From contig JBBPFI010000018.1 of assembly GCA_037974965.1 (NCBI GenBank), forward strand, positions 712,458 to 776,457: a stretch of 64,000 bases of DNA. Direction: 5' to 3'. This stretch comes from Dacryopinax spathularia (Eukaryota; Basidiomycota; Dacrymycetes; Dacrymycetales; Dacrymycetaceae). The translations under genes and the position numbers were made by a program. Positions 1 to 16,061 of this stretch are shown here, piece by piece (position 1 is the first letter of the stretch; every line of letters starts with the position of its first letter). The notes under the pieces are model-generated. The model did not search any database. It was not told where the DNA came from and saw only the letters and a list, made by a program, of their open reading frames with translations.

Positions 1-615
1 ATCAAACTGATCAACACGGAGCGATGATCAGTCGGCCGATCATTTGCTTTGAGAGCGGGGTCTGGGCCTCGCTGTGATGGGAGAAGTGTCTCGGGATCAC
101 GTGTCTCCTTACTCTTGGTCTGGGCGGTAGGTCGCTTCCTCCTCCCCGGCTTGTATGCAAGCCTGCTTCTTCAGGCATGCGTCCTTCCTCTGTAGGGCGG
201 TACTTTCCCGATTTGTTAGCGTGCTGGCTGGGAACGGCGATCTTCATGCTCGACCCGTTGAGAGGTGTGTCTGAGATCTCTCCGAGGGGGCGGGATCGCC
301 CATGTGACTTGCTGCTTGCAAGTTCCAACTCCGGTCAGATTCACTCCGGCTAAGAAAGGAGATCGACAGTACTCCGCGCAAGACGGGGGAAGGGAATCGC
401 TCTATCTCTGCTATCTGGCTCTTCTCTGGGTTTGGACATTTGTTCTGGGATGTGTGGTCGGTCTTTACCCAAAAGGGACGCGCGTGACCAACAGAGCTTC
501 CTACTACTCAAGTCCCTCCTTGCAGCAACTGGAACACTCATCTGCGTAGCCTTCCATTGGTATCTTCTATTGGTATGAGAGGCAACCAAGGTATGTTCGA
601 ACATCCAACACCGAC
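1..615. other. No recognisable gene, left edge of window
   Basis: Open frames of 94-105 codons exist on both strands but overlap one another and show no family motif, signal peptide or consistent splice structure. I see no gene here. The 3' flank of the mitochondrial carrier gene probably occupies the right part. Confidence 0.4.
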
Positions 616-1761
616 CTATGTCGCAAGCAGATCCTTCATCATCTGCCACACAGCAAAAGAGATCCCATAAGTCGGAACCTGTTTAACCAGTCCCAGCCCC
701 AAACCCGCATAAAACCCCCTCACCCCTCTAGCATAAAACACTTCTCGCATAGTCGTCCAAGCGCTAAAGAAGTACGTTCTTCTTTGGGCAGAGATGCGGG
801 GCGTGGAAGCTTGCTGGACTCTTCGGATCACTTCGAGGGGGTAGGTTATGATTTTCGCTAGTGCTCCTGCTGAGCCTCCGATGGTGGCGTGGATGAGAGG
901 TTTGTTCGTTTTCTGGAACTCGGGCGGAAAGTTCGAGCGGGTCCAGGCGTTGCCCGCGTCCCAGAGGAGGAAGAGCAGGCCTCGATATGTCACTGTACCG
1001 AGGAGAGAGACTGGCAGGCCTCGGTAGAAGTTCGCTAGGCGCGGAAGGGTTGAGGAGTTGGTAGACTCGGAGTAGATGTTCTGGATTGTGGGCCAGATCC
1101 GGGGTGGCGTACCGTCCTTGGTGGCCATTCGTACGCGCAGCAGCTCTAGCGGGTATGTGACTGGGAGGGTAAGCAGCGCTATATCATCCCTTGTGCGCTC
1201 AGAGATCGATTTGGGTAGTGCGGTAGGAAGAGAGCCCACCTGCCAAGCTACCATTCAGCGCCCACTGGATAGGTGTTCCTTTCCACTCGTTCGGTACGAC
1301 GATCTACAGCGCTCCGCTCCTTAGACGTTTCTTAGGCCATTGCTGCGTGTGAGAGGCATACCGGCCGAAGTGCATCGTATATCCCATGAAAGACGGCGCT
1401 GTACGGCAGCACCCGCGCGAGGGCCATCGAATGACCTTGATATAGCCCGCGGATGCCATGTTGTCGCCAGATGCTCCTTAGTACATTTAGTATTCTACTG
1501 GTAAATCCTGGCCTCTTATATCAGGTAGGAGACAGAAAGCGATCGTGAGAGCTTACGGCCATTGCGTTGCGCTACGAGAGGATGCGAGGTTTGGAGGAGG
1601 ATGACGATCCGGTCTAGGGGCGCAACCGCGGTCTTAGCCTGTACCGACACCGGAGGACGGTGAACGTCAGCGCCTTTCTGATCAAAGACCGTACGCACGA
1701 TCCCACCAGCTACCGCACCAGCAACCAAGGATTTCCAAACAGGCAGGTCACCTCGGCCCAT
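616..1761 (-). CDS. Mitochondrial carrier (SLC25) protein, Leu5/CoA-carrier-like
   Basis: Inner-membrane solute carrier, multi-exon. Three carrier repeats are visible. Repeat 1 has PLDRIVILLQTS and then GIRGLYQGHSMALARVLPYS. Repeat 2 has PLELLRVRMA and then FYRGLPVSLLGTVTYRG. Repeat 3 has PLEVIRRVQQ and then GFYAGLGLGLVKQVPTYGIS. Exon 1 is 1699-1761 and its intron (1639-1698) is in frame. Removing it joins GAVAGGI to AKTAVAPLDR, as expected for a carrier N-terminus. Two further introns lie between about 1180 and 1360. The GxRGxxQGHS...R.xPY pattern resembles the yeast Leu5-type coenzyme A carrier, but substrate is inference. The junction between exon 2 (ends about 1557) and exon 3 (about 1500) does not resolve in phase with a plain GT-AG intron. 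That leaves a non-canonical donor, an unseen small exon or a frameshift there. Confidence 0.75.
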
Positions 1762-3440
1762 ATTCGGGCACCGAGGTTAGGCGGCAAGAAAGGAAAACAA
1801 GAGTCAGGCACAACAGGCGGCTGAGAGCCAAATATTTGCTTCCTTCTACGGCTTCAACCGAACCACTCTGCGAAGAAGGAAACACCCTGACGACTACCGA
1901 CGATCCTCCTGTCGATCTCCCTCCGAGATCTAACCAGAAGTTCGGAACGGTCGTCTTAAGAAGAGGAACCGGCGAACAATACCGCCACTCTTGCCAGCAA
2001 ACCTCGTTTCCACCGATCCTCGGAGGATCGCTGCCAGGGGAATTGAATTCGGCTCTGTCTCGGCCTTCTCGAGTGCTCCTTCTGCCGGAGCCTACTCAGG
2101 GTTTTGGTTCAGTTCGCTTCTGTCTTTCTCTGAGCTAAATGTCGGGGAGTTTATCTGCCGGCGAGTTGCTGGCGATCGTAGCAGTGATCAGGCCGGCTTG
2201 TCGCTCGGAGTGTGCATCGCACTGGACGGTTCAAGTGCTAGACTAGGTTTACCCAGAACAATCTACATCCACGCATCAAGATCCGCAAGAAAGATAACTC
2301 GAAAGTCGAGCATTAGCAGGAGATGATTGTCTAGCTCAACTCCCCTCAGAACAACCCGCAACGGCCGGACGTGCATAGGACATCGAGCCCACAGCGACGC
2401 TGAAGACATATCTCGCGCACGACTATTAGTGGTCAGGAGCCTTGGCGACGTCAGAGTGCACTCGTTCTAGAGCTGATGCTTGACCGCCGGGTGCTCTTGC
2501 TGAAGCTCCAACTCGCTGTTGGAATGACTGTTCGATATTGACGCACAGCGAAGGAACGATCGCCTGTCTCAGCTCAGCTGCCATTGATCTGGCTGCATCG
2601 CCGCCCACTGAACGTGATCATCCTGCAAGTCAAGAGCTCGACCTTCAAGGACAGTACAAGGACAGTCCTTTTGTGGCTTGTGCTATGTCCTCAGCGAGAC
2701 ATGAACCGTACTTCCGAAATGTACTGGACGGGAGGACACCGGATACGTCCACGTGCTTTATTTGCGGGGCGGGCGTTTGTCAGTCAAGTCAGCGAGCAGA
2801 AGTGTCGAAATCGTGTTAGGCTATCAGCCTTCATTCGATTCAATGCATTCCCAGACAGTGATGGAGATGTTCCGTCCCGGACCGCGACAGCTGTCCGGCG
2901 GTACTTATCCTAATTGTCCGGATCCAAAAATAGCTTCTGACACCATGATTAGGGATCATGGGCGCCAATCATGTACGCCTTCATCAACGACTACAATGTG
3001 CACTTGCCAAGAGTTCTCCTCTGCTCCAGTCATTCTCGGATGAACGTGGTACGACACCGTGCTGTACTGTGCTGCTGAAACGCCATTATAAACGCGACGA
3101 TGACCAACGTGCTACGATGTCATGAAGACACGGCGTAATCTATGCGGAGGCATTCAAACCCGAAGTGGAGGTCCGTATCGATTCCATCTGATCAGCTCAT
3201 TGTCCCTCGAACACGTTCTCTTACTACGCGCATGGTGTTCTGCTCGCACTTGCGGACATCGGAGCATCTGGCAACATGACCGCCAACCCGGGGTGCAAGA
3301 AGGAGACACATTGAGGACGTTGTGCATGCGGATGTCTCACATTTCTCAGGAACGATGAGGCGCCCGTGGTTGACAGTCGGTGCCGGCAGCCGGACATGTC
3401 ATGTGCACCGTCCTGCTGCCTTTTGTTTCCCATGCTCTGC
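1762..3440. other. 1.7 kb without a recognisable gene
   Basis: Overlapping short open frames occur on both strands, none with a recognisable domain or coherent splice pattern. It should contain the promoter of the carrier gene (left) and of the lipase gene (right). Nothing else is supported. Confidence 0.4.
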
Positions 3441-3443
3441 GGG

Positions 3444-3450
3444 CTATAAA
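3444..3450 (+). promoter_or_regulatory. TATA box of lipase gene 1
   Basis: The sequence CTATAAAG lies about 60 bp upstream of the lipase start codon. The paralogous lipase gene has the same arrangement at 16063-16069, so this is probably a conserved core promoter. Confidence 0.6.
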
Positions 3451-3506
3451 GGAGACGTGACCGTGCTTTCCATAGCGCTCGCGACAGTTCGCCGCATCTC
3501 TTGGAC

Positions 3507-4911
3507 ATGATGGCTCGTCAACTTGCTATCTTCCTTGCACTCCTGCTCCTGAGCGGCGTTTTGGCATCACCTTTGCTCCCAAGGAAGAATACGGCACCGG
3601 TAACCAAGCTGAGCGCAGCCCAAATCTCAGCCATCACGCCCTTTGCTTGGATGACAAAGTATCAGCCTGATCTGGAGCGTTCAAGGCGGTTCTTCTGATA
3701 GCCATCCAGTGCTGCATACTGTTCTCACGCGGCTGTCCAGTCATGGTCTTGCGGCGGTTAGTCGTTCACATGGGAACAAATCGCTAGCTTACAAGGTCTT
3801 CCCAGCTGCATGCTCAGCGCTTCCGGGCGTGAAGGTCATCCTCACTGGCGGTGACAACGGCGCTACGCCCGACTACTATGTCGCGTATTACCCTGCCGCT
3901 GGCGCAATCATCGTCTCGCATCAGGGTACGAACACCGACAGCATCTTGTCGCTTATCGACGATGGGGAGGCCAACCTGGTCGGCCTTTCTCAGACGTACT
4001 TCCCAGGCACCTCCGGTCTCGAGGTTCAGTAAGTGCCCCAGTTTGCGCCGGGAAGTTGCGTGCTGAGGTCATGCAGCGACGGCTTCCAGCAAACCTTCGA
4101 ACGCTCAGCATCTGCCATTCTGAGCGCGGTCCAATCCGGTATCTCAACCTACAAGGCGTCGCATGTCTTCGTCGTCGGCCACTCTCTCGGCGCTGCTGTT
4201 GGTCTTCTGGATGCGTTGTACCTTGCCACCCATATTTCTACGCCCGTCACGACCACTTTGTTTGGCTTGCCTCGCGTAGGAAACCAGGCGTTTGCCAACT
4301 ACATTGATGCACATGTGTGTTGACTCCCGCACCCGGAAGAGATCTTCGACCGATGATTCATTTTAGGCGCTGAATCTGCAGCATGTGACGAACGATAATG
4401 TGAGGAAACACATGACTCGAATACCGTGGTGGACTAACGTTTCAATAGGATATTGTCCCGCGCTTGCCTTCTACTGACTTCGGCTATGAGCATCCATCGT
4501 ACGTCCTCACTGCTTGCTCGACGAGCCATCCGTTGACCATATCCAGTGGGGAAGTCTTCATTACTAAGGTCGGCGGATCGACGTACGAAGCCTGTCCAGG
4601 TAGGCGCCCTGTTACACAGTTATGTTCAATGCTGACTGCTCTTCAGGGCAAGAGAACTACAACTGCGCAATTGGCTAGTCGCGCTCATTGCACTGGAAGT
4701 GCTCGCTGACGACGTGTGCAGGCATTTTCTTCTTGGAAGATAGCACGAGCCCGCATGATGGGTACGTCACCAGTTCTCACAGCATATGACACCGGCTGAT
4801 CTCAGGAACATCATTCTAGACCTTATGCGGGGGTGATGTGAGTCGCTCTGTTGCGGTTCCGAGACATGTGCTAATGTGCGTAGGTTGGGATCGGCTGCCT
4901 GTACCGCGTAA
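3507..4911 (+). CDS. Secreted fungal class-3 lipase, copy 1 (11 exons)
   Basis: Extracellular triacylglycerol lipase/feruloyl-esterase type, alpha/beta hydrolase. It opens with MMARQLAIFLALLLLSGVLA, a signal peptide. The nucleophile elbow GHSLGAA is in exon 4. The catalytic Asp is in NDNDIVPRLP and the His in FGYEHPS. Exons traced by splice signal and frame: 3507-3658, 3710-3756, 3788-4028, 4077-4314, 4367-4399, 4449-4498, 4547-4599, 4647-4673, 4722-4761, 4820-4837, 4884-4911. They sum to 927 nt, 308 aa plus stop, with no frame break. The intron 4674-4721 must use a GC donor, because every GT option leaves an in-frame TAG. It is a paralogue of the lipase at 16148-17343, which keeps the same core but has fewer introns. 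The LTR retrotransposon starts 134 bp downstream. Confidence 0.88.
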
Positions 4912-5041
4912 GACTGGACGAGAAGTGCGTCAGCGACTGCAATGATAGTCACTATGATGCCAATGATCTACTTGGGTTTTAAGTTTCCATTTGGCTTCTG
5001 CACGAGCCCTAGTGAACGTGCTTCTGTGCTCGTCCAATTGA

Positions 5042-5045
5042 GTAA
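5042..5045. repeat. Target-site duplication, left
   Basis: GTAA directly precedes the left LTR and is repeated at 15692-15695. If the final LTR base is ambiguous, the duplication is AGTAA (5 bp), the usual size for this class. Confidence 0.6.
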
Positions 5046-5509
5046 TGAACTGCTCGGTCCTATCGTAGATAGTTCCTAGAGCTTAGTTCTTTTAATGGAA
5101 TATCGTTATTGGTTCTATCAAAAGGAGTGTGGTGCGAATGGATAAGGATCGAGTGACAGTGGGCGGTAACGCCTAACAATAACGCCGATAACGATAACGA
5201 GAGTTGTGGATGCAGATCCTCTGGAGGGGAATCCAGGAAGGTGGAAAACGAAGGAGAAAGCAAGCGAGAGCAGCAGTAAAATATGAAGTGGTTGCCTGCG
5301 CAAATCTGCCAGGCACAGGCACAGGGAGCGCCTCACGTTTCAGGTGCATCCACCGTGGCACGTCGGCAGTGGGTAACGCCATGCGGTAACGCTTCGATGG
5401 CCGCTCGGCTATGGATAACGCGGGCCGGTGACGCCATATCGGCGGTATTTGGGATCGGCGATATCGGTGCTTGATAATTTGTTCTAATTAACTAACTACG
5501 AACAGTACA
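5046..5509 (-). repeat. 3' LTR of the retrotransposon
   Basis: 464 bp, offset 10182 bp from the other LTR, no difference found by eye. Ends are TG...CA. It is rich in the words CGGTAACGC and ATAACG (for example near 5162, 5174-5200, 5371 and 5384), which recur throughout the element. Confidence 0.93.
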
Positions 5510-5727
5510 TCCGCGGGGGACTTTTAGACAATGACTGTCCTCAGTCATCCGTCGAATGCACTGCCGTAGCCAGTCAATAAACGTCAAGATTTGTGGCGGT
5601 TCGAATTTCTTGAGGTCTTGCAATTCTCGCGTATGTTCTTCGCTGCCCATTGTGTTCGGCCGGCTGGTTTCGTTTTCGAGCGTTATCCGTCGCAGGGAAG
5701 CCTGTTCTCCGCGGGGGACTTTTTAGA
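5510..5727 (-). repeat. Duplicated polypurine-tract-like motif
   Basis: The word TCCGCGGGGGACTTTTAG sits directly against the inner edge of the 3' LTR (5510-5527) and recurs with one extra T at 5708-5726. The first copy occupies the position of the plus-strand primer (polypurine tract) for a minus-strand element, although it is only partly purine-rich. Confidence 0.45.
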
Positions 5728-5940
5728 ATATCAACCTCCTGGTTGATAGAAAAAGAAGGCGTCCGGAAGCAATTGGTAACGGCGCGGTAGTGGCAGTGAC
5801 GGCGAAAAAGGTTTTTAAACCGAGTTTAGACGCGTCTCGGAGGGTCTCACAGGTTGTCTCTGACCATAATTGTCGACTCCTCCACCGTACTCGACTCCTC
5901 GCTCCCTAGGTGACTTGTAAGAGACCTGGTCGACGACGAC

Positions 5941-8457
5941 ATGGTACCGCCATCGGTACAACGCGAGCAACGTCGGCAAACGGCGGTACTTGCGCAGAAG
6001 GCGAAAGTCGACGCATGGGTGAAGAGCTGCGTGGATCGCGCGCGCGTGCGGGCGACGTCCAAGGCGGTAGGACAGGCGATGAACGCCATGAAGATCGTCC
6101 TCGCCTATCCTAATGAAAAGAAGTGGTCCGGCATTGTAGCGTGGATGGGCGTCAAGGAGAATGCGGAGTTGCTCCGGGTGCGTATTTCGCAGGTCCATCC
6201 CGAATGAGACTAATACGTCTACAGCGTGATGTGACGGCGATTCTGCGGAAACATCCGTACACGTTGGCAGCGATCGACCAGTGGCGTGCGATGTTGCTGG
6301 GAGAGGTCACCCAGCGCATCTGGCTGGAGTATGCGAAGGAGAATGGTAAAAAGGTGAGTACCAGTGCGCGCCGATAGATACCGCTTGCTAACGATGCGTT
6401 ACAGACCGACAAGTTCGAGTTGGGCCTGAAGGGCGTAGCGACGCCTGGTGAAGAATTCGATTGGGTTGAAGAAGAAACCCTGGACGATTTTGAGGTTCCA
6501 GACCTCGATGAGGAGGATCCCGTCCAAGCCGACGAAGCGCCCGCCGCTTCAGCTGGGGAGGCGGTATCGACGATACCGACAGAATCGTCCGGCGGTAAGA
6601 AGACGGCGACAGAACCGGCGCCCGCCGAAGAGGAGACGCCTGCGGCGAAGAAGGCGCCCGCCAAGGGAAAGGGAAAGGAAGTTTCCCGGCCGAAGGAGGT
6701 GACAAAGGAGAAGGAGAAGGAGAAGGAGAAGGATAAGGAGAAGGAGAAGGGAGTCGCGGATGAGGAGGTGGCGAAGAAACGCCAAACTCGGGCATCCGTG
6801 AAGGCCGTAGCGGAGGCGACTGCCGAGGTGGATGAGAAGCGGCGCAACGAGCTGCTGCAGAAGCGGAGAGAGGAGGCAGCGGTGGAGAACGCCAAGGCGC
6901 CGCCTGCGATAGGCTCGGGCACGCCCGGCAAAAGGGTGAGTGCTTTTTTCTTGCTCCGTGCGTTATCGTCGGTATTGATCATCGCCAGACCGCCAACAAG
7001 GGCGGTAATAGCGGTACCTCCGCGAAGGCTGCGGTACCCGCTGCCGCTCCTGAAGCCGCTCCGGTCGTGGCGCCGCCGGCCAAGAAGACGGTGACCCCGG
7101 CCAGAAAGCCCGTCAAGCCTGCTGCAAAGCCCCTTCCCGTTATTTCGGACCCAATCGAAGTGCGCGCGCCGCGTGGACGAGGCCAAGAGAAGCCGGCGAG
7201 GGGAACTACGCCCGGTGGGGAGGAAACGTGGGGCGGCAAGGTACGTCAACAAGTTAAATGATCACTTGACTTGTGTCTGATATAGGTTTCAGATCCTGCG
7301 CCCTCCGTCGGGGTATGAACTGTTCTGGACGATCCAGGGAACGCCTTGGTTCGTTACGAAGGCGGCAAAGGCGGTATGTGCGGTATTTCCTGCGGATAGA
7401 TTCTTGCTAACCAGAGATGTGTAGTGCGACTATTGCAAGGATCGGAAGCAGGTCTGCCTTATTTCGCATGAGGGAGGGCAGTGCACTGCCTGCCACCTAC
7501 GTCGCAAGATGTGTTCGATTGCGAAACCCGATGGTATGTGGTTTTGGTTTAGTAACGGTGATACCGCTTACTAACGATTCGTTTTGTATGGGATAGAGCG
7601 CCGCGGTCGCGTCCGGGGCGAAAAGGGAGGCGCTGATGCCAAACGTGAGACGTCCGAGGCTGTGACCGTCGTCACAGAGAAGTTCCGCGAAGGAACAATT
7701 CAAGATGACGTTGAAGCGTTCGAATATGAGGCGACGCGCGGTAAGCGGTATGATCGCGGTAATGACTCTCGTTTCTAATCCGTTTGTAGACGCGGCCCTC
7801 GCCAATATCAACTGGTTGGTGCATCACCAACAAGTACTGAATATGTTGCTGTCTGCCAACATGCGTCGCCTCAATCTGGCGGACAAGGACGGTTTGGAGA
7901 GCGTCCTCATGCTCAGCGCCACGGACGAGGAGATTGCCGGGGCGGCATTGACCGGGAGGAAGTTTTTCCTGGAGCCCACTAGCTTCCCGTTCCGTATTCT
8001 CACCCCGGAAGACGAGAAGAAGACGTGGAGGGAGCTCCTTGTCGACTCCGTTAAGGTCATGACCGCCAACGAGGCCGATGTCGAGTTGGACCTTACCGAC
8101 ACGGATACCGCCGGTAACGCTGCCGGCTCCGAAGGCCATATCCGAGAGGTCCGTCCCTCCACGAGTGGAACGAAGAGAAAGCGCGCGTCGCCCGAGCCCG
8201 GTGCAGAAGGAGAAGAGGCGGAAGAACCTCAGGAAGCGAGTGCCCGCCCCAAGCGGGTGAAGAAGTCGGTAGAGCGTTATGGCAACCCTACCGACCCGAT
8301 CATCGCGGCTAAGGAGGCGAGGGAGGGAGATGAAGAACAACAGGTGGACGCTGCTTTGGAGGAGGAGTCATCAGTTGATGACTCTGATAGCGACTACGAG
8401 GTGCCTCCTCCAGGTACGGATGACTTGCGGGAAGAGGAGGGAGAGGACGAAGTGTAA
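5941..8457 (+). CDS. Antisense Zn2Cys6-type nuclear protein carried inside the retrotransposon (8 exons)
   Basis: Exons: 5941-6177, 6225-6353, 6405-6935, 6989-7240, 7293-7373, 7425-7533, 7597-7740, 7790-8457. They total 2151 nt with no phase conflict, 716 aa. The N-terminal 120 residues are helical. Residues about 120-380 are acidic, then Ala/Pro/Lys-rich with a KEKEK stretch of coiled-coil type. Exon 6 opens exactly on a six-cysteine motif (C411, C414, C421, C430, C433, C440) with spacing CX2CX6CX8CX2CX6C, the GAL4-type binuclear zinc pattern. The C-terminus has a basic KRKRASPEP segment and an acidic tail. It is convergent with pol and lies between pol and the 3' LTR. It is likely a DNA- or chromatin-binding protein. 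Function is inferred from the zinc pattern only. All splice sites read GT...AG on the plus strand, so they are not splice signals in the minus-strand genomic transcript. Confidence 0.82.
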
Positions 8458-8779
8458 CGCCGTCGGTAATGCGGTATTCGTTCGTCCCGGAGCGGGGGTG
8501 TAGTTAGAATTACCCCATGGTGTATGTGTAGGATATCGTGCGGAGGAAAGAAATAGAGTGAAAATCCACTTGTGTGAACGTCTGCAAGATTGATTGAGAG
8601 GAGATGGAAGGTCGTAGTATCCAGTTTATGTCGGCATTTGCATGAATTGGTGCCTCTTTTCTTTTTCGATTTTCTATTTGTTATGTACGGTAGGACGTCG
8701 TATATCGGATCGTCGATGGGTATAATTTAGACAGTGGTATGGGTATGGTGTCCTAGTTGCCCGCTACTCTGTTGACCGT
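8458..8779. other. Intergenic strip between two convergent genes of the retroelement
   Basis: About 320 bp of AT-richer sequence between the stop of the antisense gene and the stop of pol. It presumably holds overlapping 3' ends. I see no ORF. Confidence 0.5.
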
Positions 8780-11700
8780 CTACGGATCCCCCGAAGTCGG
8801 TTCGGGTAACGCGTTGGTATTGGCATCGGTATCCTCTGCCGTGAGACGATACGGGAGGTCTTGTAAGCGTTTCATAAGCTCATCCACTTGCGATTTGAAC
8901 TCCACCCTGGTGTGAAAGGGCACCAATCTGAATCCTGCGACGGCTTGGCGTCCGATCGTACCGTCCAACTCGGCTATGGTATATGCTCCTCCACGGTTCC
9001 GTTTGATAACGACAAAAGGGCCGATATAACGCGGTAACGTTTTGTCCCGAAGGTCTCCGTCATTTCGGGAGTTGCGCAGTAGAACCAAGGAACCCGGATC
9101 ATACGATACGTCACGAATGAGGTTTGCATACTTCTTGCGGAACCGTTCCGCTGAGTGTTCTCGAGCCAGGAGTATTTTCTCATGAATGCGGGCAAGGTCC
9201 TCCGGTCTTCGCTCTAGTTGTCTCGCGCGTCGGGTGATTAGTTCCTCTCGTGAACATAGTTCAGACGGAGTTTGGACAAGGAAGGTAGCTTCGACCAGGT
9301 CTATAGGCAATGTTGGGTGCGTCCCGTGTGCCATATAGTATGGCGTTAACCCGGTAACGCTGCTGAGCGTTACGCGTTCGGCCCAGAATATGGTAGGGAG
9401 GATCGCCGGCCATCCCCCTATGTTGCCTTGTGCCGCTCGTACAATACTTTCTCGTACTCCGCGGTGGGATTGTTCGACTAACCCGTTCGCTCGAGAGTTG
9501 TAGCCCGATATGCAGATGTGGGATATCGCGTATTTTTGCGTTAGCGTCGAAAGCGCGTTAACCCATGGAGTACCGTTGTCGGTGACGATTTCATATACAG
9601 TTCCCCACCGGCATAAGAGCGTATTGAAAATGAAATCGGCCAAGTTTTTTCCACTTTCATTCCGTAACATACACCATTCTGGATAGTGCGTTAATGAACA
9701 TCGGGCTTGTGCAATGTATCGGTACCCCGCTTTCGGCGTTTTCGAAATGGGCATAAGCATGGTATCACAGTATGCTTTTCCGAACAGTTTCGCAGGCGTC
9801 TGAACAGTTGGGGGGAGGAGGACCCTCGTTGTTTGTTGTTGTTGACACGATAGACAGGTTTTGATATACCAGGCTATGTCCTCCGCCATCCGTGGCCACC
9901 AGAATCGTAGCATAAGATGTGCTCGGATTGTCCTTAGTCCTTTATGTCCTAGCTCGTCATGGGCCATGCGTAACGCCCGGTACCGCCGCTCGTACGGTAG
10001 ATATAAGAGGTGGTTACCGTTGTCGTCCCTCTTATATAATTCCCCATTATTTCCTATGAAAAATCGCGCCGATATTTTCAGTATTCTTCGCCATTCCTTG
10101 TCAGACGTGTCCTCAGGTCGTTTCAATGTACGCTGGTATTCGATAATCTTCTGAATATCCGTGTCCATCTTGGCGGCGTTAGAGGAAAGCGGTAAGAATG
10201 CCGAACTCGGCGTTATTGAATCGTTGCTCTCCGGTGGGCCGTGTTCCGCTACCACCATCGGTACGTCAGATGAGTGACCCTCTGTGGCCCAGGGGAGTTC
10301 TCGTTCCTGCCACACTACTGGGCTATCCGGCGGCGTGGTTAATGGGGACGATATGTAGTGGCCCTCATCCACATCGTGTAGGCGCTGGTCCGGTAAGGAG
10401 GGAGTTTCACTCGTTGGAGATTGAGGGGGCGTCGTAAGCGGCGATAACGGTGCGTTATCCGTCTTCTCGTGCGGCAGGTCACCCTCTTCGGGCCAGAAAA
10501 AGACAGGCACTCCAGGCCTGGGAAGGGGGGGACGGCGGGGAAAGGTCAACGATAGATAAAGAAATAGAGCAGGTGTCGTTGACAGGTTGAGGGTGTCTTC
10601 GTCATATTCAGGGACGTCCTCTTGAGTGGGATCCGTGGTGGTAGGTGGGCGGCGGGAGAGACCATCCGGGGCGGTATGCTTTTCCGCAGGGACGTGAACG
10701 AGGTCAAAGTTAAACAAGGCGATGTACGCCAGCCAACGATTGATGGTAGTATTGGGCTGGATATCAGGGTGACGGATCATGCCTTTCAGATATTGGGCAT
10801 CAACCTCTAGAGTGAAGGTAGAGAGGCCGATGAGCCAAACGCGGTAAGCTTTTAAGGCACGGAAAAGTCCGTAGCATTCCAGCTTCGCCTGAGAATAGCG
10901 GCTCTCTCGATCATTCCACGTAATGGAACCGAATCGGGAGGGTCGTCGGCGCCCGGTGTCGTCGAGTTGATATAAGACAAAACCGACTGCGATAGACGAG
11001 GAGTCAACCGCAAAGATAACGCGATTAGGGGAGGCGTAATCGATTGGGCGGAGGACGTTATTTTCTAACGCCTGCTGAGCCGCCGCTTGGAGGGTGCGGA
11101 CCGCGGTAAGATGGATGTCGTTAAAGTGGAACGGCACGTTTTTCTTTTTGAGCTCCTCAAGAGGGCGTGCGATATGTGCGTAGTTGCGGATGAACGTCCG
11201 CATAATCCCGACCGTACCAAGGAAAGAAAGAACTTCGGAAATGTTTTCACAAGGGAGTTTCCAGTCCAAGATCTTTTGGCTTTTGGAAGGGTCGGGTTGG
11301 CGACCGGCGTAGGAGCAGCGGTGACCAAGGAGAATGATTTCCGGCACAGCGATCTCAACCTTTGCACCGGACAGTGTCGCGCCAGAATGTTCGATGCGTG
11401 TGAGAATGCGATGGACGTCCCCCAGATGCTCCCAGATAAAACGGCGGATTCCTGCGTTATGGGCGGTAGTTTCATAGGTACCGTCCGCTCGCTCGTATCG
11501 CGTTGGTGGTCCTTTGATACCGCCGTCGTCAATGAAAGGTGTTGTGATGTGCGGTATCTCTGGTTCGAGTATGAATGTGACGTTATCCTGCATGATGCCC
11601 GGCATATTATGGGCTCCCATGGGGGCGACGCAGTAACGGAGTGGGCCGAGAGGGGACTGAAAAGTGGTAAGGTCCCGGGAAGATGGAGCCAACTTGTGCT

Positions 11701-12490
11701 GTTCAAACCCGCGGAAGAAGTCGATGAGGGAGTAACAAGCGCGGCCCCCATAGGACTCGATGAGGTGTTCGGTAAGAGGCGGTACCGAAGAACTTTTGAT
11801 CATGACGCCATTAAGAGGTTGTAGATTTATGACTGGACGCAAGTCTCCGTTCTTCTTTAGCACGACGAACCATGTTGAGCGATATGCTGACTGTGCCGGT
11901 TCGTATGCACCGGCCTGGATCTTTTCACGGATAGTAGAGATAACTCTTTCGACTAACGCGGGCGGTATCGGTAAGTTGCGGTCTTGCCAGGGGGTATGTT
12001 CGATCGTGGGGAAGACCACAGGGTCGAAATAGTCGTCTCTGAAGCGACCGATTTCCACTTCTTCCCACGAGAAGGCCATTTCATGTGTCCGGAGAACCCA
12101 TGCCGCCAGTTTGACTTCCTCCGGCCATAGGAAACCGTATTTGTTAATGCCAAGGGCTTCGTAACGCTCCTGCGTTAATCGAATGCCAGGTGTAAAGGAC
12201 GGTGGTTGGTGCGGTAATGGAAGCAGGCCTTGTAAAGGGTCCGAAGGGAATCGGCGATGTATTTTGAGCTCTTCCGGGTGGGTAGTTGCTACTGGTTTAA
12301 CTCGATGCTCAACCTTTTTGTATTTTCTGAGGGCCAGGCAGTGTAGCCGCTCGTCGTATGTGTACGTGCGCTGTAACGCGGTTACCGTCGGTAGGATCGT
12401 TAACGCTGGTGGGGGTATCGAGTTTACCGGCGTTGTGGTAAGGAAAATGTCTCCTCGGGCTGAACCCGACTCCTCGACTAATGAAAATCC
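8780..12490 (-). CDS. pol: Pol polyprotein: reverse transcriptase, RNase H, integrase
   Basis: The frame is open from about 12490 (inside the end of gag) to the stop at 8780. The first ATG is at 12079 and gives 1099 aa, but 134 further codons upstream are open and probably translated by frameshifting from gag. From the ATG: reverse transcriptase with YSLIDFFRG (first Asp near residue 120) and active site FIDD at 182-185 in place of the usual YxDD. RNase H follows with FAVDSSSIAVGFVLY. The integrase has an H2C2 zinc finger (HDELGHKG...CLSCQ) and DDE residues in YCDTMLM, VTDNGTPW and LVEQSHRG. A GPF/Y-like module follows (PRYIGPFVVIKR). No chromodomain is seen at the C-terminus. All motifs look intact. 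Confidence 0.92.
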   Translation of the reverse strand, partial: GFSLVEESGSARGDIFLTTTPVNSIPPPALTILPTVTALQRTYTYDERLHCLALRKYKKVEHRVKPVATTHPEELKIHRRFPSDPLQGLLPLPHQPPSFTPGIRLTQERYEALGINKYGFLWPEEVKLAAWVLRTHEMAFSWEEVEIGRFRDDYFDPVVFPTIEHTPWQDRNLPIPPALVERVISTIREKIQAGAYEPAQSAYRSTWFVVLKKNGDLRPVINLQPLNGVMIKSSSVPPLTEHLIESYGGRACYSLIDFFRGFEQHKLAPSSRDLTTFQSPLGPLRYCVAPMGAHNMPGIMQDNVTFILEPEIPHITTPFIDDGGIKGPPTRYERADGTYETTAHNAGIRRFIWEHLGDVHRILTRIEHSGATLSGAKVEIAVPEIILLGHRCSYAGRQPDPSKSQKILDWKLPCENISEVLSFLGTVGIMRTFIRNYAHIARPLEELKKKNVPFHFNDIHLTAVRTLQAAAQQALENNVLRPIDYASPNRVIFAVDSSSIAVGFVLYQLDDTGRRRPSRFGSITWNDRESRYSQAKLECYGLFRALKAYRVWLIGLSTFTLEVDAQYLKGMIRHPDIQPNTTINRWLAYIALFNFDLVHVPAEKHTAPDGLSRRPPTTTDPTQEDVPEYDEDTLNLSTTPALFLYLSLTFPRRPPLPRPGVPVFFWPEEGDLPHEKTDNAPLSPLTTPPQSPTSETPSLPDQRLHDVDEGHYISSPLTTPPDSPVVWQERELPWATEGHSSDVPMVVAEHGPPESNDSITPSSAFLPLSSNAAKMDTDIQKIIEYQRTLKRPEDTSDKEWRRILKISARFFIGNNGELYKRDDNGNHLLYLPYERRYRALRMAHDELGHKGLRTIRAHLMLRFWWPRMAEDIAWYIKTCLSCQQQQTTRVLLPPTVQTPAKLFGKAYCDTMLMPISKTPKAGYRYIAQARCSLTHYPEWCMLRNESGKNLADFIFNTLLCRWGTVYEIVTDNGTPWVNALSTLTQKYAISHICISGYNSRANGLVEQSHRGVRESIVRAAQGNIGGWPAILPTIFWAERVTLSSVTGLTPYYMAHGTHPTLPIDLVEATFLVQTPSELCSREELITRRARQLERRPEDLARIHEKILLAREHSAERFRKKYANLIRDVSYDPGSLVLLRNSRNDGDLRDKTLPRYIGPFVVIKRNRGGAYTIAELDGTIGRQAVAGFRLVPFHTRVEFKSQVDELMKRLQDLPYRLTAEDTDANTNALPEPTSGDP

Positions 12491-15201
12491 GCAGGTGCGA
12501 CGGAGTCACCAGGAGGATTGAGAGCAAGCGCCGGATTTGCTTGTATGAAGGCCGCTGTATCCTCTGCGTTCTCCGAAGGGTCTGCCTGACGGGGTTTCCA
12601 GGGCCGAGCACCGATCGTAACGCGGGTATCGGTATTGGGACATTTCAGCGTTAACTGCATTTCTCCTGAAGTCCCGTCGAACGTTTGACATTGCAACAAT
12701 GTCAGGAAGGGGCGTCCGAGAAGAATATGGAAAGGAGATTCTTTCACGATATGGACTTGTAATAGGAAAACGATCGGTCTGATGGTCACACGTAGGTTGC
12801 GGATACAGCCTAACGTCATTTCGGATTGGCTGTTGGCGGATTCCATCTGTATGGTATCGTCCGGTAAGAATGGGATCCGTAGTCGCTTCCAGGCATGAAA
12901 GTTGATAGCAACAATCACCGACCCCGAGTCAATACAACCGGTCATGGGGATGTCAACATCTCCAACCAGTAAATCGATTTCTCGTAACGCCACGAGTCGT
13001 TTTCCTACGATAACGCCCGACGGGCTGTCGATGGCTCCCGACACATGTAATGCTTGTGCGAGCGTCGGTACTCCGTCGAGCGTTACCGTGTTCTCCTGAC
13101 TTGGCTGAACATTCCCAGATGTACTGCCTAACTCGGGATGACCAAAGGTCAGAACGTGGTCACCCGTCTTCGGTACCCGTTTGACTCCCGACTGGTAATG
13201 CAGCATCTTCCGTACTTCTCCGGATACCGCCATGAGTCCGCGTAATGTCAGATTAATCGGTACATCCAAGGTTTGATCGAGGACGCGGCGGACTACTTCG
13301 TCGTTCTCGATAGGGGCTCGGAGCTGGGAACGTGACTCTGGTTTGGAATTTGACTCCTCCAGAGGGGAGTCCTCAGTAGATCGTTCCGGGCGTGGTAATA
13401 GTCGTTCGGGAGTCGGTACCGAGGCGGTACCGTCTGCTTCTGAGTCGCGCGGTTGTAGTGGTTTGCCGAGATATTTGGTGGGAAACGGGCGACCAACAGG
13501 TTTACCTTTCTTCCGGATATTTGATATTTCGGCTTGTAAGACGTGTATCCGTTGAAGATCGCTAGCAGAAAGGATATTCTCCTGATTATCGGTACTCGGC
13601 GTTATGTCTGCGTTTGGCGTATCGAAAGTAAAGGCCTGAACCGGTGCCGCTCGCGTCGTGAGGAGGTTTACTGGGGCACTGGGGCGCGTTGGTATTCCGG
13701 CTTGCGCATTAAGTTCTGCGGTCGTATTGCCGGGGTATTGGCGATGCCATTGTAGGACTCTTTCTTTAAGCGTTCGGGCTTGAATGTACCCGGGAACGTA
13801 TCGTCCGGTAGGTAGAACTAGTCGGCCCTCTGCGTTCCGAATTACGAGTCCTTGTCGGATGTGTTCCTCCGCATCGGGGCATTGATTTACCATATGAGGT
13901 CCGTCGCACCAGATACACCCAGTCGAGCGGGGTGGAATACCGCCGTTACCTTGAGCGTTATATGCCGGTACCGGTCGGGATTGGGGTGGAGTGTTGCCTT
14001 GATATATTCCTTGTCGGGGAGCCGACTGGCCTTGCTGGAGGAGGGTATGGACAGCGTTGGTCAGTGTGTTCAGATTCGATACCATGGATGCGAATGCGTC
14101 CGATTCCTCTGTTTTGATTTTCACTGTCGGTTCGATTTGATGAGTCGTTGTCCCGTCGGATAACGCAATGACCGGTGCCTCTGCAGAGGTATCACCCAGG
14201 AGCCAGTTTGCAGCTTGAAGAACGTGTTCCATTGGGTAGGGGTCGTCAGGATAATTGTCGGGGAACTTAATCTGCAGACGATGCTTAAGTCTTTCGCGGA
14301 ACACCGGATGAAATCCGCGGAGAAATTCTCGATCGCGTTCAAGGACGGAAATCCGGTCTTTCCGTAGTAACCAGGAAGCAATCCTTGTGAATTCGCGGTT
14401 GTACTCGCCCAACTGGCCTCGGTGGCTCATAGGAATCGTAGCAGAGCGGTTTACCAGGTCTTCCAGGTTCGTTCGGGAATACCGCCTTTCGTCGGTATCG
14501 GCGCCAGGATATAACGCCAACACTTCACGCTTGAATCGGTCGTAGTCGCCACCCGTGAATGACGCCAGGCTCCGCCATGTCTCCTCGACTGTCCCCGGTG
14601 GATATCGCACCGACGCTAGGATTCTGTCTTGTCCCCGCAGGCCGCAGGCATCTGCACACTGTTCGTAGTCTTCAAAGTACCGCCGCACGTCGGTAGGGTT
14701 CGTCGAAGCAAAGTACGGAGCGTCCCGGCTATTTCGGAGGGGCATTTGCCTTCGGGGAGGGCGCTCCTGGACTGGTGGTCCTTCTGCTTCCTGATCGAGT
14801 GGGTCCATGTTGCTGCGGAGTTCTAACTGGCCGGCTAACTCTGATGCGAGGTTAACAACCGAAGGGTCCGGTAATTGATGTAAACGTTGTTCTAGGAGAG
14901 TGGATAAGCGGGTCGCTGAACTGTCGGCCGAAGTCGTGTCAGTGGAGCTCCCTTCTTCCTGATCCAGGGTATCTCGAGTCGCCCGAGTTCGGTTCGGTTC
15001 TATCGGGGAGACGACAATCGGGGCGGTATCGTGGGCGGTATCAACGAGCGGTAATTCCGGGGCCGAATCGATAGGTTGAAGGAAATCCGCGGTCCTCTCC
15101 GGGGACGGGTAGTAGCGTCGACGTGTTTTGACAATGGCGGGCGATAACGATAAACAAGCGAGTTTTTTGTTATACCGACACTGGCAGTTTTGAAGAACCA
15201 A
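12478..15201 (-). CDS. gag: Gag-protease polyprotein
   Basis: Open for 907 codons from 15201, but the first ATG is at 14808 (MDPLDQEAEG), giving about 776 aa. An upstream near-cognate start is possible. The capsid-like region has CGLRGQDRILASVRYPPG and EETWRSLASF, similar in position to Ty3-type Gag. A zinc knuckle of variant spacing is present, CIWCDGPHMVNQC (CX2CX3HX4C). The C-terminal third is an aspartic protease: active site CIDSGSVIVAI and the flap/end motif HILLGRPFL. Protease is thus in the gag frame and pol follows by -1 shift. The start region overlaps or abuts the primer binding site, so initiation is uncertain. Confidence 0.88.
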   Translation of the reverse strand: MVLQNCQCRYNKKLACLSLSPAIVKTRRRYYPSPERTADFLQPIDSAPELPLVDTAHDTAPIVVSPIEPNRTRATRDTLDQEEGSSTDTTSADSSATRLSTLLEQRLHQLPDPSVVNLASELAGQLELRSNMDPLDQEAEGPPVQERPPRRQMPLRNSRDAPYFASTNPTDVRRYFEDYEQCADACGLRGQDRILASVRYPPGTVEETWRSLASFTGGDYDRFKREVLALYPGADTDERRYSRTNLEDLVNRSATIPMSHRGQLGEYNREFTRIASWLLRKDRISVLERDREFLRGFHPVFRERLKHRLQIKFPDNYPDDPYPMEHVLQAANWLLGDTSAEAPVIALSDGTTTHQIEPTVKIKTEESDAFASMVSNLNTLTNAVHTLLQQGQSAPRQGIYQGNTPPQSRPVPAYNAQGNGGIPPRSTGCIWCDGPHMVNQCPDAEEHIRQGLVIRNAEGRLVLPTGRYVPGYIQARTLKERVLQWHRQYPGNTTAELNAQAGIPTRPSAPVNLLTTRAAPVQAFTFDTPNADITPSTDNQENILSASDLQRIHVLQAEISNIRKKGKPVGRPFPTKYLGKPLQPRDSEADGTASVPTPERLLPRPERSTEDSPLEESNSKPESRSQLRAPIENDEVVRRVLDQTLDVPINLTLRGLMAVSGEVRKMLHYQSGVKRVPKTGDHVLTFGHPELGSTSGNVQPSQENTVTLDGVPTLAQALHVSGAIDSPSGVIVGKRLVALREIDLLVGDVDIPMTGCIDSGSVIVAINFHAWKRLRIPFLPDDTIQMESANSQSEMTLGCIRNLRVTIRPIVFLLQVHIVKESPFHILLGRPFLTLLQCQTFDGTSGEMQLTLKCPNTDTRVTIGARPWKPRQADPSENAEDTAAFIQANPALALNPPGDSVAPADFH
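12484..12490 (-). promoter_or_regulatory. Probable -1 ribosomal frameshift site between gag-pro and pol
   Basis: Read on the minus strand the site is G GAT TTT followed by CAT and the gag stop TAG at 12478-12480. Slipping back one base moves ribosomes into the pol frame, which is open from here through the ATG at 12079 (402 nt, exactly 134 codons). G-GAT-TTN heptamers are used by some retroviruses for -1 slippage. A downstream structure was not evaluated. Confidence 0.55.
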
Positions 15202-15207
15202 TAAGAT

Positions 15208-15225
15208 ATCCCAGCACGACCTCCA
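15208..15225 (-). promoter_or_regulatory. Primer binding site (tRNA-like)
   Basis: Read on the minus strand it is TGGAGGTCGTGCTGGGAT, starting 2 nt after the 5' LTR. The complement ends in CCA and resembles the T-arm and acceptor end of a tRNA (CCCAGCACGACCTCCA). The primer tRNA was not identified. Confidence 0.65.
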
Positions 15226-15227
15226 AA

Positions 15228-15691
15228 TGAACTGCTCGGTCCTATCGTAGATAGTTCCTAGAGCTTAGTTCTTTTAATGGAATATCGTTATTGGTTCTAT
15301 CAAAAGGAGTGTGGTGCGAATGGATAAGGATCGAGTGACAGTGGGCGGTAACGCCTAACAATAACGCCGATAACGATAACGAGAGTTGTGGATGCAGATC
15401 CTCTGGAGGGGAATCCAGGAAGGTGGAAAACGAAGGAGAAAGCAAGCGAGAGCAGCAGTAAAATATGAAGTGGTTGCCTGCGCAAATCTGCCAGGCACAG
15501 GCACAGGGAGCGCCTCACGTTTCAGGTGCATCCACCGTGGCACGTCGGCAGTGGGTAACGCCATGCGGTAACGCTTCGATGGCCGCTCGGCTATGGATAA
15601 CGCGGGCCGGTGACGCCATATCGGCGGTATTTGGGATCGGCGATATCGGTGCTTGATAATTTGTTCTAATTAACTAACTACGAACAGTACA
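15228..15691 (-). repeat. 5' LTR of the retrotransposon
   Basis: 464 bp, apparently identical to 5046-5509. It must carry the element's promoter, which fires leftward. The target-site copy GTAA follows at 15692-15695. Confidence 0.93.
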
Positions 15692-16061
15692 GTAAATAAC
15701 GTGGAAGTTAATCCGACCAGGCTTCCGAATGGTGCGATTATCCCGGATAGGAGGCATGTCAGTGTGCTGGCAGTGCTACAAGATGCTGGAAGCACGATAA
15801 CAGAAGAAACGAAGACCGACTCTTTACCCAGGAATAGTTCCCGGATCCGCGGAAGACACCGTGCACCGCGTGTGCGATGCGCTCGTCACTGATGTTTACG
15901 CGTGCTGTACCTTGTCGCGACCATCTGCTGGTTCTGTCTGCGTACGCTGAGGCAACTGTTCTCCGGTACTGCCAACGATGTCAGGCCACTCAGACCATAA
16001 GACCGCACTCTGTGCATATGGACTGGCTTCGCACGTTTGGAAGAAGCAATTCTCAGCATTG

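What the first reader, a model, noticed from the sequence alone, without database searches (positions are those of the whole stretch)
5941..8457. Intron-rich Zn2Cys6 gene carried antisense inside a young LTR retrotransposon
Eight exons splice cleanly to a 716-aa protein with a CX2CX6CX8CX2CX6C zinc pattern, inside an element whose LTRs look identical. Retrotransposition through RNA should erase introns in the sense direction. Here the gene is antisense to the genomic RNA, so its GT-AG introns are invisible to splicing of that RNA and survive each cycle. This suggests a stable extra gene of the element, perhaps regulating its transcription, targeting or silencing, rather than a random host capture.
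Basis: partly seen in the sequence, partly recalled or inferred. Interest (0 to 1): 0.85.

Follow-up and report, generated by a model that had tools for sequence, protein, structure and literature searches.

The report
Antisense intron-bearing gene inside a retrotransposon
A fungal jumping element carries an extra, intron-bearing gene on its opposite strand that selection keeps intact, and the element is sprinkled with a short conserved DNA word that differs between related element families, which suggests (but does not yet show) that the gene's product recognises its own element.

Summary
A young Ty3/gypsy-type element (window 5044-15691, repeats 466/466 identical) has gag-pol on the minus strand. 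On the plus strand, between pol and the 3' LTR, lies an 8-exon, 716-aa gene with CX2CX6CX8CX2CX6C. The 6 family copies found in this genome all carry it, same place and orientation, with all 7 GT-AG introns; 5 of 6 are intact. dN/dS is 0.14-0.24 in 10 pairs; every exon shows a third-position excess; exon indels are multiples of three. It is an element gene. Six of nine related elements examined carry an antisense reading frame with a similar Cys pattern.

New here: the element is dense in GCGKTA (about 8/kb; 0.75/kb in the rest of the window), in coding and noncoding parts and on both strands, beyond synonymous-codon controls. Sites are conserved (65 of 79 intact in a diverged copy, 32 expected). 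Two related families with Cys genes have other words (TATCGG; TTTCGG/TCGCGA). Best explanation: the gene encodes a sequence-specific DNA-binding factor that recognises its own element, probably countering silencing, as VANC does for VANDAL transposons. Expression, binding and anti-silencing are inferred, not shown.

The parts
5046..5509 (-). 3' LTR in element sense (TG..CA; the identical repeat itself is 5044-5509)
   Evidence: 466/466 identical to 15226-15691, GTAA at 5042-5045 outside
15228..15691 (-). 5' LTR in element sense
   Evidence: GTAA at 15692-15695 outside
15210..15225 (-). putative primer-binding site (TGG... on the minus strand)
   Evidence: 14-mer present in 6 of 6 copies and at 2 other places; tRNA not identified
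12478..15264 (-). gag-protease open frame (stop to stop, includes LTR sequence at its 5' end)
   Evidence: protease matches below Pfam cut-off
8780..12505 (-). pol frame: RT, RNase H, integrase (stop to stop)
5941..8457 (+). antisense gene, 8 exons, 716 aa: exons 5941-6177, 6225-6353, 6405-6935, 6989-7240, 7293-7373, 7425-7533, 7597-7740, 7790-8457
7425..7533 (+). exon 6 with the Zn2Cys6-like Cys cluster
5510..5940 (+). region between 3' LTR and gene, presumed to hold the antisense promoter (inference)
   Evidence: 75.7-98.6% identical between W and the four aligned copies; no promoter test made
5044..15691 (.). GCGKTA/TAMCGC sites: 89 over the element with both LTRs (81 counting one LTR)

Best explanation
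The 716-aa protein is a permanent accessory protein of a Ty3/gypsy-type retrotransposon, made from its own antisense, spliced transcript. It is a sequence-specific DNA-binding protein with a Zn2Cys6-like cluster that recognises GCGKTA-type sites (paired form CGKTAMCG), which the element keeps along its length, LTRs included. By coating its own DNA it keeps the element open to transcription, most likely by opposing host CpG methylation or heterochromatin, as VANC does for VANDAL transposons. Related families carry diverged versions of the gene with different CpG-containing words, so each family recognises itself. SHOWN: gene conserved and protein-coding; motif enriched, family-specific and, most clearly in this family, conserved; gene kind and a family word occur together in three families. 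INFERRED: antisense transcription and splicing, DNA binding, that the gene product reads the motif (about 0.65), and the anti-silencing outcome (about 0.45).
For: Gene in 6 of 6 copies with all introns; dN/dS 0.14-0.24 in 10 pairs of the 5 intact copies; W-C17 about 0.10 in the Zn region, 0.075 at the N-terminus; third-position excess in 8 of 8 exons. Cys spacing of the fungal Zn cluster; exon 6 matches PF00172 along its length, below the cut-off, in 3 of 3 F1 exons scanned. Motif: pol GCGTTA 20 vs 3.1 and GCGGTA 12 vs 3.0 by synonymous shuffles, replicated in held-out sequence 25 vs 3.1 and 32 vs 3.8; also in LTR and introns; both strands, several frames; 8.2-8.7/kb in 6 of 6 copies. Conserved: 65 of 79 W sites intact in C17 vs 32.2 expected, pol 31 of 32 vs 13.9 (binomial 4e-14 and 1e-10). 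Other words in two other Cys-gene families, replicated in held-out sequence. Within the family, where the Cys exon is 81-92% identical to W, the word is the same. The words contain CpG; element CpG o/e is 1.24 vs 0.97-0.98 in the flanks.
Against: No binding, transcription or methylation data. Zn_clus score 12.6 bits is below the cut-off of 21, and for W the weak first-ranked Pfam match is zf-CXXC (13.3 bits, cut-off 26.5); AlphaFold2 of the 36-aa exon is of low confidence (pLDDT 61). W's protein has no detectable similarity to the 3' regions of the other families, so kinship of the genes rests on position, orientation and Cys pattern. Only three gene-word pairs. F5 (another antisense frame, no Cys pattern) shows a weak word of its own (CGAGAT 12 vs 4.0 in pol, held-out 10 vs 3.7). 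CGGTA, not CGTTA, is raised in the 5-kb left flank too (17 vs 5.8). The gaps beside the gene are not enriched. Two of six F2 comparisons show no real excess of conservation (51 of 69 vs 50.3 and vs 48.9). VANC motifs lie in noncoding tandem repeats; these do not.
Confidence: 0.5

Rival explanations
1. LTR-only regulator: the protein is a transcription factor acting on the LTR promoter, as activator or as copy-number repressor, and binding in the body of the element has no function or only titrates the protein.
For: The LTR has the highest site density of the regions counted (8 GCGKTA in 466 bp; CGTTA 8 vs 1.0); Zn2Cys6 proteins are typically transcription factors (general knowledge); nuclear or DNA-binding roles are proposed for plant antisense proteins (PMC11963269, passages).
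Against: 32 sites in pol and 17 in gag, far from the LTRs, are more conserved than matched CG-bearing 6-mers; a promoter-only factor would not need them.
Confidence: 0.22
2. The words are read by something else (integrase, Gag or a host factor) and the antisense gene does another job, such as integration targeting.
For: W's protein has no detectable similarity to the F2/F3 antisense proteins; F5 has a weak word without the Cys pattern; CGGTA is raised in the left flank as well.
Against: Both strands carry the sites (49 and 32), which argues against an RNA packaging signal; words differ between families of one genome, which argues against a single host reader; Cys pattern and strong word occur together in three families, and neither is clear in F6.
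Confidence: 0.2
3. The antisense transcript acts as RNA (double-stranded RNA, silencing control) and the protein does not matter.
For: Antisense transcription as a regulator is discussed for plant elements (PMC7264820, passages).
Against: dN/dS 0.14-0.24, third-position excess in every exon, exon indels only in multiples of three.
Confidence: 0.03
4. A host gene caught by chance in this element.
For: The genome has at least 35 Zn_clus matches over the cut-off, so sources exist.
Against: 6 of 6 copies carry it; no host paralogue detected; introns retained in copies with dS about 1.
Confidence: 0.02
5. The motif is a by-product of base composition, codon bias or mutation.
For: The element is CpG-rich (o/e 1.24) and CGGTA is also raised in the left flank.
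Against: Synonymous and dinucleotide shuffles, held-out replication, different words per family, stronger conservation than other CG-bearing 6-mers.
Confidence: 0.03

Closest known systems
brtn of Boty-like Ty3/gypsy elements, Botrytis cinerea (Zhao et al. 2011, Virology 417:248; not read, known from citations and passages in PMC8365987, PMC7264820, PMC4227169)
   Same: Fungal Ty3/gypsy element with an extra antisense gene between pol and the 3' LTR.
   Different: Whether brtn has introns, a Zn cluster or a paired motif was not seen. The Boty polyprotein is said to have a chromodomain (PMC4227169 passage); none was matched in this pol by Pfam. Sequences not compared.
Antisense aORFs of plant elements: Grande gene23, RIRE2, PvRetro13, Retand TRP28 (PMC7264820 and PMC11963269, passages)
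   Same: [quoted passage not shown] nuclear or predicted DNA-binding protein; regulatory role proposed.
   Different: The words intron and zinc do not occur in either main text, and the passages seen describe no dispersed family-specific motif; different host kingdom and protein.
VANC/VANDAL anti-silencing system, Arabidopsis (PMC5735166 passages; PMC10398659 abstract and outline)
   Same: Element-encoded protein plus short motifs enriched in the same family; related families use different motifs; effect spreads over whole elements.
   Different: VANDALs are Mutator-like DNA transposons; VANC motifs lie in noncoding tandem repeats, these are dispersed and lie in coding parts too; no binding or methylation data here.
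Transposon-encoded TET/JBP dioxygenases of fungi (PMC12730594, passages)
   Same: Transposons of mushrooms carry a protein proposed to counter CG methylation.
   Different: Enzymes of DNA transposons and Helitrons; that paper remarks on the lack of TET-bearing retrotransposons.
Fungal Zn(2)-Cys(6) binuclear cluster proteins (PF00172)
   Same: Cys spacing and a sub-threshold profile match along the exon.
   Different: Below Pfam's cut-off; the cluster is central in a 716-aa protein, and no Pfam domain was matched in the full protein.

Membership tests
Ty3/gypsy LTR retrotransposon | identical direct LTRs, TG..CA, short target-site duplication | tested here: met
Ty3/gypsy LTR retrotransposon | RT-RNase H followed by integrase in pol | tested here: met
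   RNase H 496-596, then integrase zinc-binding 837-892, both over cut-off; RVT_1 at 216-395 below cut-off
Ty3/gypsy LTR retrotransposon | tRNA primer site next to the 5' LTR | tested here: inconclusive
   TGG-starting site in 6 of 6 copies; the two other genomic matches are not called tRNA
Zn2Cys6 (PF00172) | CX2CX6CX5-12CX2CX6-8C (PROSITE-like pattern recalled from memory) | tested here: met
   5 of 5 intact copies. F2 and F3 antisense frames have about 19-20 residues in the middle loop, outside that range
Zn2Cys6 (PF00172) | Pfam gathering score 21 bits | tested here: not met
   12.6, 14.2 and 11.0 bits in the three F1 exons scanned
Zn2Cys6 (PF00172) | binuclear cluster fold | tested here: inconclusive
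   AlphaFold2 pLDDT 61
Zn2Cys6 (PF00172) | sequence-specific DNA binding | not testable with these tools
   needs EMSA or DAP-seq
[quoted passage not shown]
   6 of 6 copies
antisense accessory gene of LTR elements (brtn/gene23/TRP28 kind) | homology to a described antisense protein | not tested
   brtn sequence not at hand; no Pfam match for the 716-aa protein, hence no TRP28 match
VANC/VANDAL-like self-recognition | short motif specific to own family, different in sister families | tested here: met
VANC/VANDAL-like self-recognition | motif as noncoding tandem repeats | tested here: not met
   dispersed, in coding frames too
VANC/VANDAL-like self-recognition | protein binds motif and removes silencing | not testable with these tools
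   needs ChIP and bisulfite data

The most novel reading that the evidence does not exclude
A clade of fungal LTR retrotransposons carries sequence-specific self-recognition systems: an antisense, intron-bearing gene for a Zn-cluster DNA-binding protein, plus a family-specific CpG-containing word written through the element, protein-coding parts included. The protein marks its own element along its length and shields it from CpG methylation or heterochromatin, and protein and word co-diverge between families. It would be a retrotransposon counterpart of VANC/VANDAL, evolved independently, with introns kept by antisense placement.
Probability: 0.42. Interest if true: 0.92.

Novelty: new variant of a known kind. 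Interest (0 to 1): 0.82.

Why it matters
It offers a testable case of a retrotransposon that may recognise its own DNA along its length by a six-base word held by selection even inside its own coding sequence. If true, it gives a reason why some LTR elements keep antisense genes, shows how an intron-bearing gene persists through an RNA life cycle, and extends anti-silencing by element-encoded DNA-binding proteins from plant DNA transposons to fungal retroelements, in a group where CG methylation is reported to be almost restricted to transposons (Agaricus bisporus, PMC12730594 passage). The gene-word pairs could also yield a set of DNA-binding specificities.

Tried and rejected
Random host capture: rejected. 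Antisense RNA without protein: rejected as sole function. Codon bias as source of the motif: rejected by synonymous shuffles and held-out data. Regular spacing of sites: an early sign (longest gap 368 bp, random mean 615) did not hold for most window sizes or for CGKTA, so it is not claimed. A longer composite site GGCGGTAACGC is not enriched genome-wide (16 matches, 19 for the pattern read backwards).

Led nowhere: homologues of the 716-aa protein in the 5.8-billion-protein set, whole (E<=0.001; 7993 candidates scored) and residues 383-590 (E<=1): none. That set does hold Agaricomycete pol relatives, up to 56% identity among the 120 rows listed, so the blank speaks only about close relatives. 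Viral contigs with pol: none. PDB profile search with exon 6: five matches at E 0.42-4.7, none convincing. Exon-6 structure: low confidence, so no fold search was made. Primer tRNA not found. Literature searches: in the lists returned I saw no paper on a Zn-cluster antisense gene or a dispersed self-motif in a fungal LTR element; they cover open-licence PMC papers only.

Rows dropped: the C7 copy was left out of dN/dS (gene split by a nested element, frame broken) and out of the whole-copy alignment. The host control used the 14 longest of 50 ORFs of at least 150 codons, spurious ones included. One search ranked only 6-mers seen at least 6 times and showed the top five per family. 79 of 81 sites entered the conservation count (only sites inside four regions). 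For F2 and F3 only 3' regions were compared, and F2 there without L058. The LTR pair of C17 was compared over 86 columns only, that of C7 not at all.
Full report
What was checked. The window belongs to an unnamed 29.2-Mb genome in 24 contigs. Those pol relatives in the protein set that bear organism names are Agaricomycetes (Leucocoprinus, Pleurotus, Rhodofomes, Candolleomyces), so the host is most likely a basidiomycete (inference). The element runs from 5044 to 15691: two 466-bp repeats, identical, GTAA outside both. It lies between two class-3 lipase genes. gag-protease and pol are on the minus strand. Between pol and the 3' LTR, on the plus strand, lies the reported gene: eight exons, seven GT-AG introns of 47-63 nt, 716 aa, CX2CX6CX8CX2CX6C at residues 411-440.

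Is it an element gene? A DNA search of the genome finds the gene in seven places that make up six copies, one of them split by a nested element. A protein search with pol finds the same six as the close family (93-100% identical at the protein level, apart from one decayed end piece at 81%; counts are lower bounds by the tool's own word). So 6 of 6 copies found carry the gene, same place and orientation. All seven introns are GT..AG in all six, and five of six have an unbroken frame of 716-728 aa. Among the five intact copies dN/dS is 0.141-0.244 in the ten pairs. For W against C17, dS is 1.07, introns are 54% identical, and dN/dS is 0.075 in the N-terminal region, 0.10 in the Cys region and 0.23 in the low-complexity linker. 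Third positions change most in each of the eight exons; exon indels are 6, 9, 15, 18 or 36 nt, intron indels 1 or 2 nt. The protein search of the genome at E<=1 gives the element copies plus one weak match at E 0.67, so no host paralogue is detectable. This is a protein-coding gene of the element, held by selection through repeated cycles of reverse transcription.

Sister families. I read the 3' regions of nine further related elements of the genome. Six of nine have an antisense frame with CX2CX6C...CX2CX6-8C: the element nested in the C7 copy (L013), L048 and L049, L051 and L053, L058. By Cys segment and pol these fall into two families, called here F2 (L013, L051, L053, L058) and F3 (L048, L049). 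Their frames look broken up by introns, but I did not model their exons. Two members of a more distant group (F5, pol about 54%; L050, L054) have large antisense frames of another kind without the Cys pattern; a 27%-identical element (F6; L052, L056) shows no Cys pattern in the parts fetched. F2 and F3 are related to each other there by tblastx (E 2e-6); W's protein finds nothing at E<=1 in any of them. What links the families is therefore architecture (antisense, 3' position, broken-up frames, charged linker, Cys cluster), not sequence similarity. Within F2, dN/dS of two antisense exons read stop to stop, intron ends included, is 0.16-0.83 over nine pairs, and 0.53 for one F3 pair, so constraint there is weaker or blurred.

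The motif. The element is dense in CGGTA/TACCG (8.2 per kb, 1.8 in the rest of the window) and CGTTA/TAACG (6.5 against 0.8); the two are one word, (G)CGKTA. Shuffling synonymous codons, which keeps protein and codon use, gives in pol CGGTA 29 observed vs 10.6 and CGTTA 28 vs 10.0; in gag-PR 24 vs 6.6 and 11 vs 5.1; in the antisense gene 15 vs 4.2 and 5 vs 2.0 (the last reached by 22 of 500 shuffles). Against dinucleotide shuffles, introns give 6 vs 1.0 and 5 vs 1.5, the LTR 3 vs 0.9 and 8 vs 1.0. The gaps beside the gene are not clearly enriched (4 vs 1.8, 2 vs 1.8), and CGGTA, though not CGTTA, is also raised in the 5-kb left flank (17 vs 5.8), which I count against a simple story. Sites are on both strands (49 and 32) and in several codon frames, so the signal is at the DNA level. 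GCGKTA density is 8.2-8.7 per kb in all six copies, 0.75 in the rest of the window and 0-1.1 in the parts of other families counted (up to 1.8 in other cuts of them).

Discovery and held-out test. For each family I ranked 6-mers in pol against synonymous shuffles and then counted the winners in other parts of the element. W: GCGTTA 20 vs 3.1, held out 25 vs 3.1; GCGGTA 12 vs 3.0, held out 32 vs 3.8. F3: CGATAA 19 vs 3.3, held out 24 vs 2.6; CCGATA 21 vs 4.7, held out 41 vs 2.8. F2: TCGCGA 11 vs 2.5, held out 14 vs 6.2; ATCGCG 13 vs 4.2, held out 25 vs 8.6 (TTTCGG/CCGAAA 27 vs 9.2 over its two longest ORFs); a second F2 copy agrees for ATCGCG (8 vs 1.9, held out 17 vs 4.2). Some winners failed the held-out test (for example TCTGAA in W, GAGTCC in F2). 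F5: weak (GAGATC 14 vs 4.1, held out 7 vs 4.1; CGAGAT 12 vs 4.0, held out 10 vs 3.7). F6: none of the top five held out. Fourteen host ORFs: largest z 3.5. The density table is nearly diagonal: GCGKTA high only in F1, TATCGG (8.9-11.5 per kb) only in F3, TCGCGA only in F2, TTTCGG in F2 and also F3. An expectation-maximisation profile gives CGnTAnCG for F1 from a paired seed, with much the same core from the other two seeds, and CGATATCG for F3 from one of four seeds; for F2 it ran into pyrimidine or purine tracts or no consensus and gave nothing useful.

Selection on the sites. Of 79 GCGKTA sites of W, 65 are intact in C17 and 59 in C13b, where phase-matched CG-bearing 6-mers of the same regions predict 32.2 each; in pol 31 of 32 vs 13.9 for C17 (binomial 4e-14 overall, 1e-10 for pol; copies share ancestry, so these are rough). 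In the close copy C15 it is 75 of 79 vs 62.1. In LTR and gap the excess is small (6 of 10 vs 2.8). F3 sites: 55 of 62 intact vs 47.9 (p 0.02). In F2, four of six directed comparisons show an excess (63 of 69 vs 49.8, for example), the two with L053 as target do not (51 of 69 vs 50.3 and 48.9). CpGs inside sites are kept in 75 of 81 cases in C17, against 566 of 821 outside. CpG o/e is 1.24 in the element and 0.97-0.98 in the flanks; copy C13b, with the most diverged LTR pair of those measured (276 of 306 aligned), has more private CpG than GpC transitions (26 of 641 vs 7 of 449, p 0.02), a weak sign of methylation decay.

The protein. Exon 6 matches Pfam Zn_clus along its length at 12.6 bits (C17 14.2, C15 11.0), cut-off 21; for W a zf-CXXC match ranks slightly higher, also far below its cut-off. 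The full protein has no Pfam match. The Cys spacing fits the Zn2Cys6 pattern as I recall it in 5 of 5 intact copies. The genome has 35 Zn_clus matches over the cut-off, and this exon is not among the 45 listed. AlphaFold2 of the 36-residue exon is of low confidence. I call it Zn2Cys6-like and do not file it as a member. That Zn2Cys6 clusters read CGG triplets is general knowledge; it fits words built on CG or CGG.

How it most likely works. Three families of this genome pair an antisense Cys frame with a family-specific CpG-containing word spread through the element and, most clearly in F1, kept by selection. The simplest account is that the protein reads the word. Conserved sites inside coding sequence far from a promoter suggest that binding along the body matters, which fits protection from silencing better than promoter activation. 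VANC proteins of Arabidopsis VANDAL transposons work so: they bind short family motifs, and methylation is lost over whole elements (PMC5735166, passages). In Agaricus bisporus CG methylation is reported to be almost restricted to transposons, and fungal DNA transposons carry TET/JBP enzymes while retrotransposons seem not to (PMC12730594, passages). My odds: about 0.97 for a real element gene, 0.95 for selected, family-specific motifs in F1, 0.65 for the protein reading the motif, 0.45 for anti-silencing. Main rivals: an LTR-only regulator, or a motif read by another factor.

Comparison with the known. Antisense accessory genes between pol and the 3' LTR are known: brtn in Botrytis Boty-like elements (Zhao 2011, seen only through citations) and Grande, RIRE2, PvRetro13 and Retand in plants (PMC7264820, PMC11963269, passages). 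By itself the gene would be a new member of a known kind; seven conserved introns, the Cys cluster and the self-motif make it a new variant. I saw no paper describing such a motif system in a retrotransposon in the lists (open-licence PMC only).

Noticed in passing
family copies C15, C13a, C13b, C17 against window 5044-15691: Copies are mosaics: C15 is 98.8% identical to W in pol but 87.5% in gag-PR, while C17 and C13b are 94-95% in gag-PR, 87% in pol and 73% in the antisense gene, pointing to recombination between elements.
   Followed up: partly
G000:C7 between 1305933 and 1315860 (L012, L013): An F2-family element whose ends match at 99.7% over 347 bp is inserted in the antisense gene of the C7 copy; that gene copy also has a broken frame.
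   Followed up: partly
L050, L054 (F5 group, G000:C9 and C3): A more distant Ty3 group in the same genome has a different large antisense coding region without the Cys pattern; the longest frame of L050 has no Pfam match. Antisense accessory genes may be general in this clade.
   Followed up: partly
window 15210-15225; G000:C1:2978079 and G000:C6:128779: The primer-site 14-mer occurs in all six copies and at two other places that neither ARAGORN nor Rfam calls a tRNA; the primer is unidentified.
   Followed up: partly
window 4081-4317 and 16353-16997: The element lies between two class-3 lipase genes, both on the plus strand (Pfam PF01764).
   Followed up: no
L056 (G000:C9:812900-816000, 27% group): GCGTTA is raised in this distant pol (9 vs 2.2 expected) but absent from its 3' region; chance or a shared signal is open.
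   Followed up: no
window 1-5043: CGGTA, but not CGTTA, is raised in the left flank of the element (17 vs 5.8 by dinucleotide shuffle); unexplained.
   Followed up: no
window 5510-5528 and 5708-5727: A TCCGCGGGGGACTTTT stretch occurs twice, beside the 3' LTR and about 200 bp further in; by eye there is no clear polypurine tract at the expected place.
   Followed up: no
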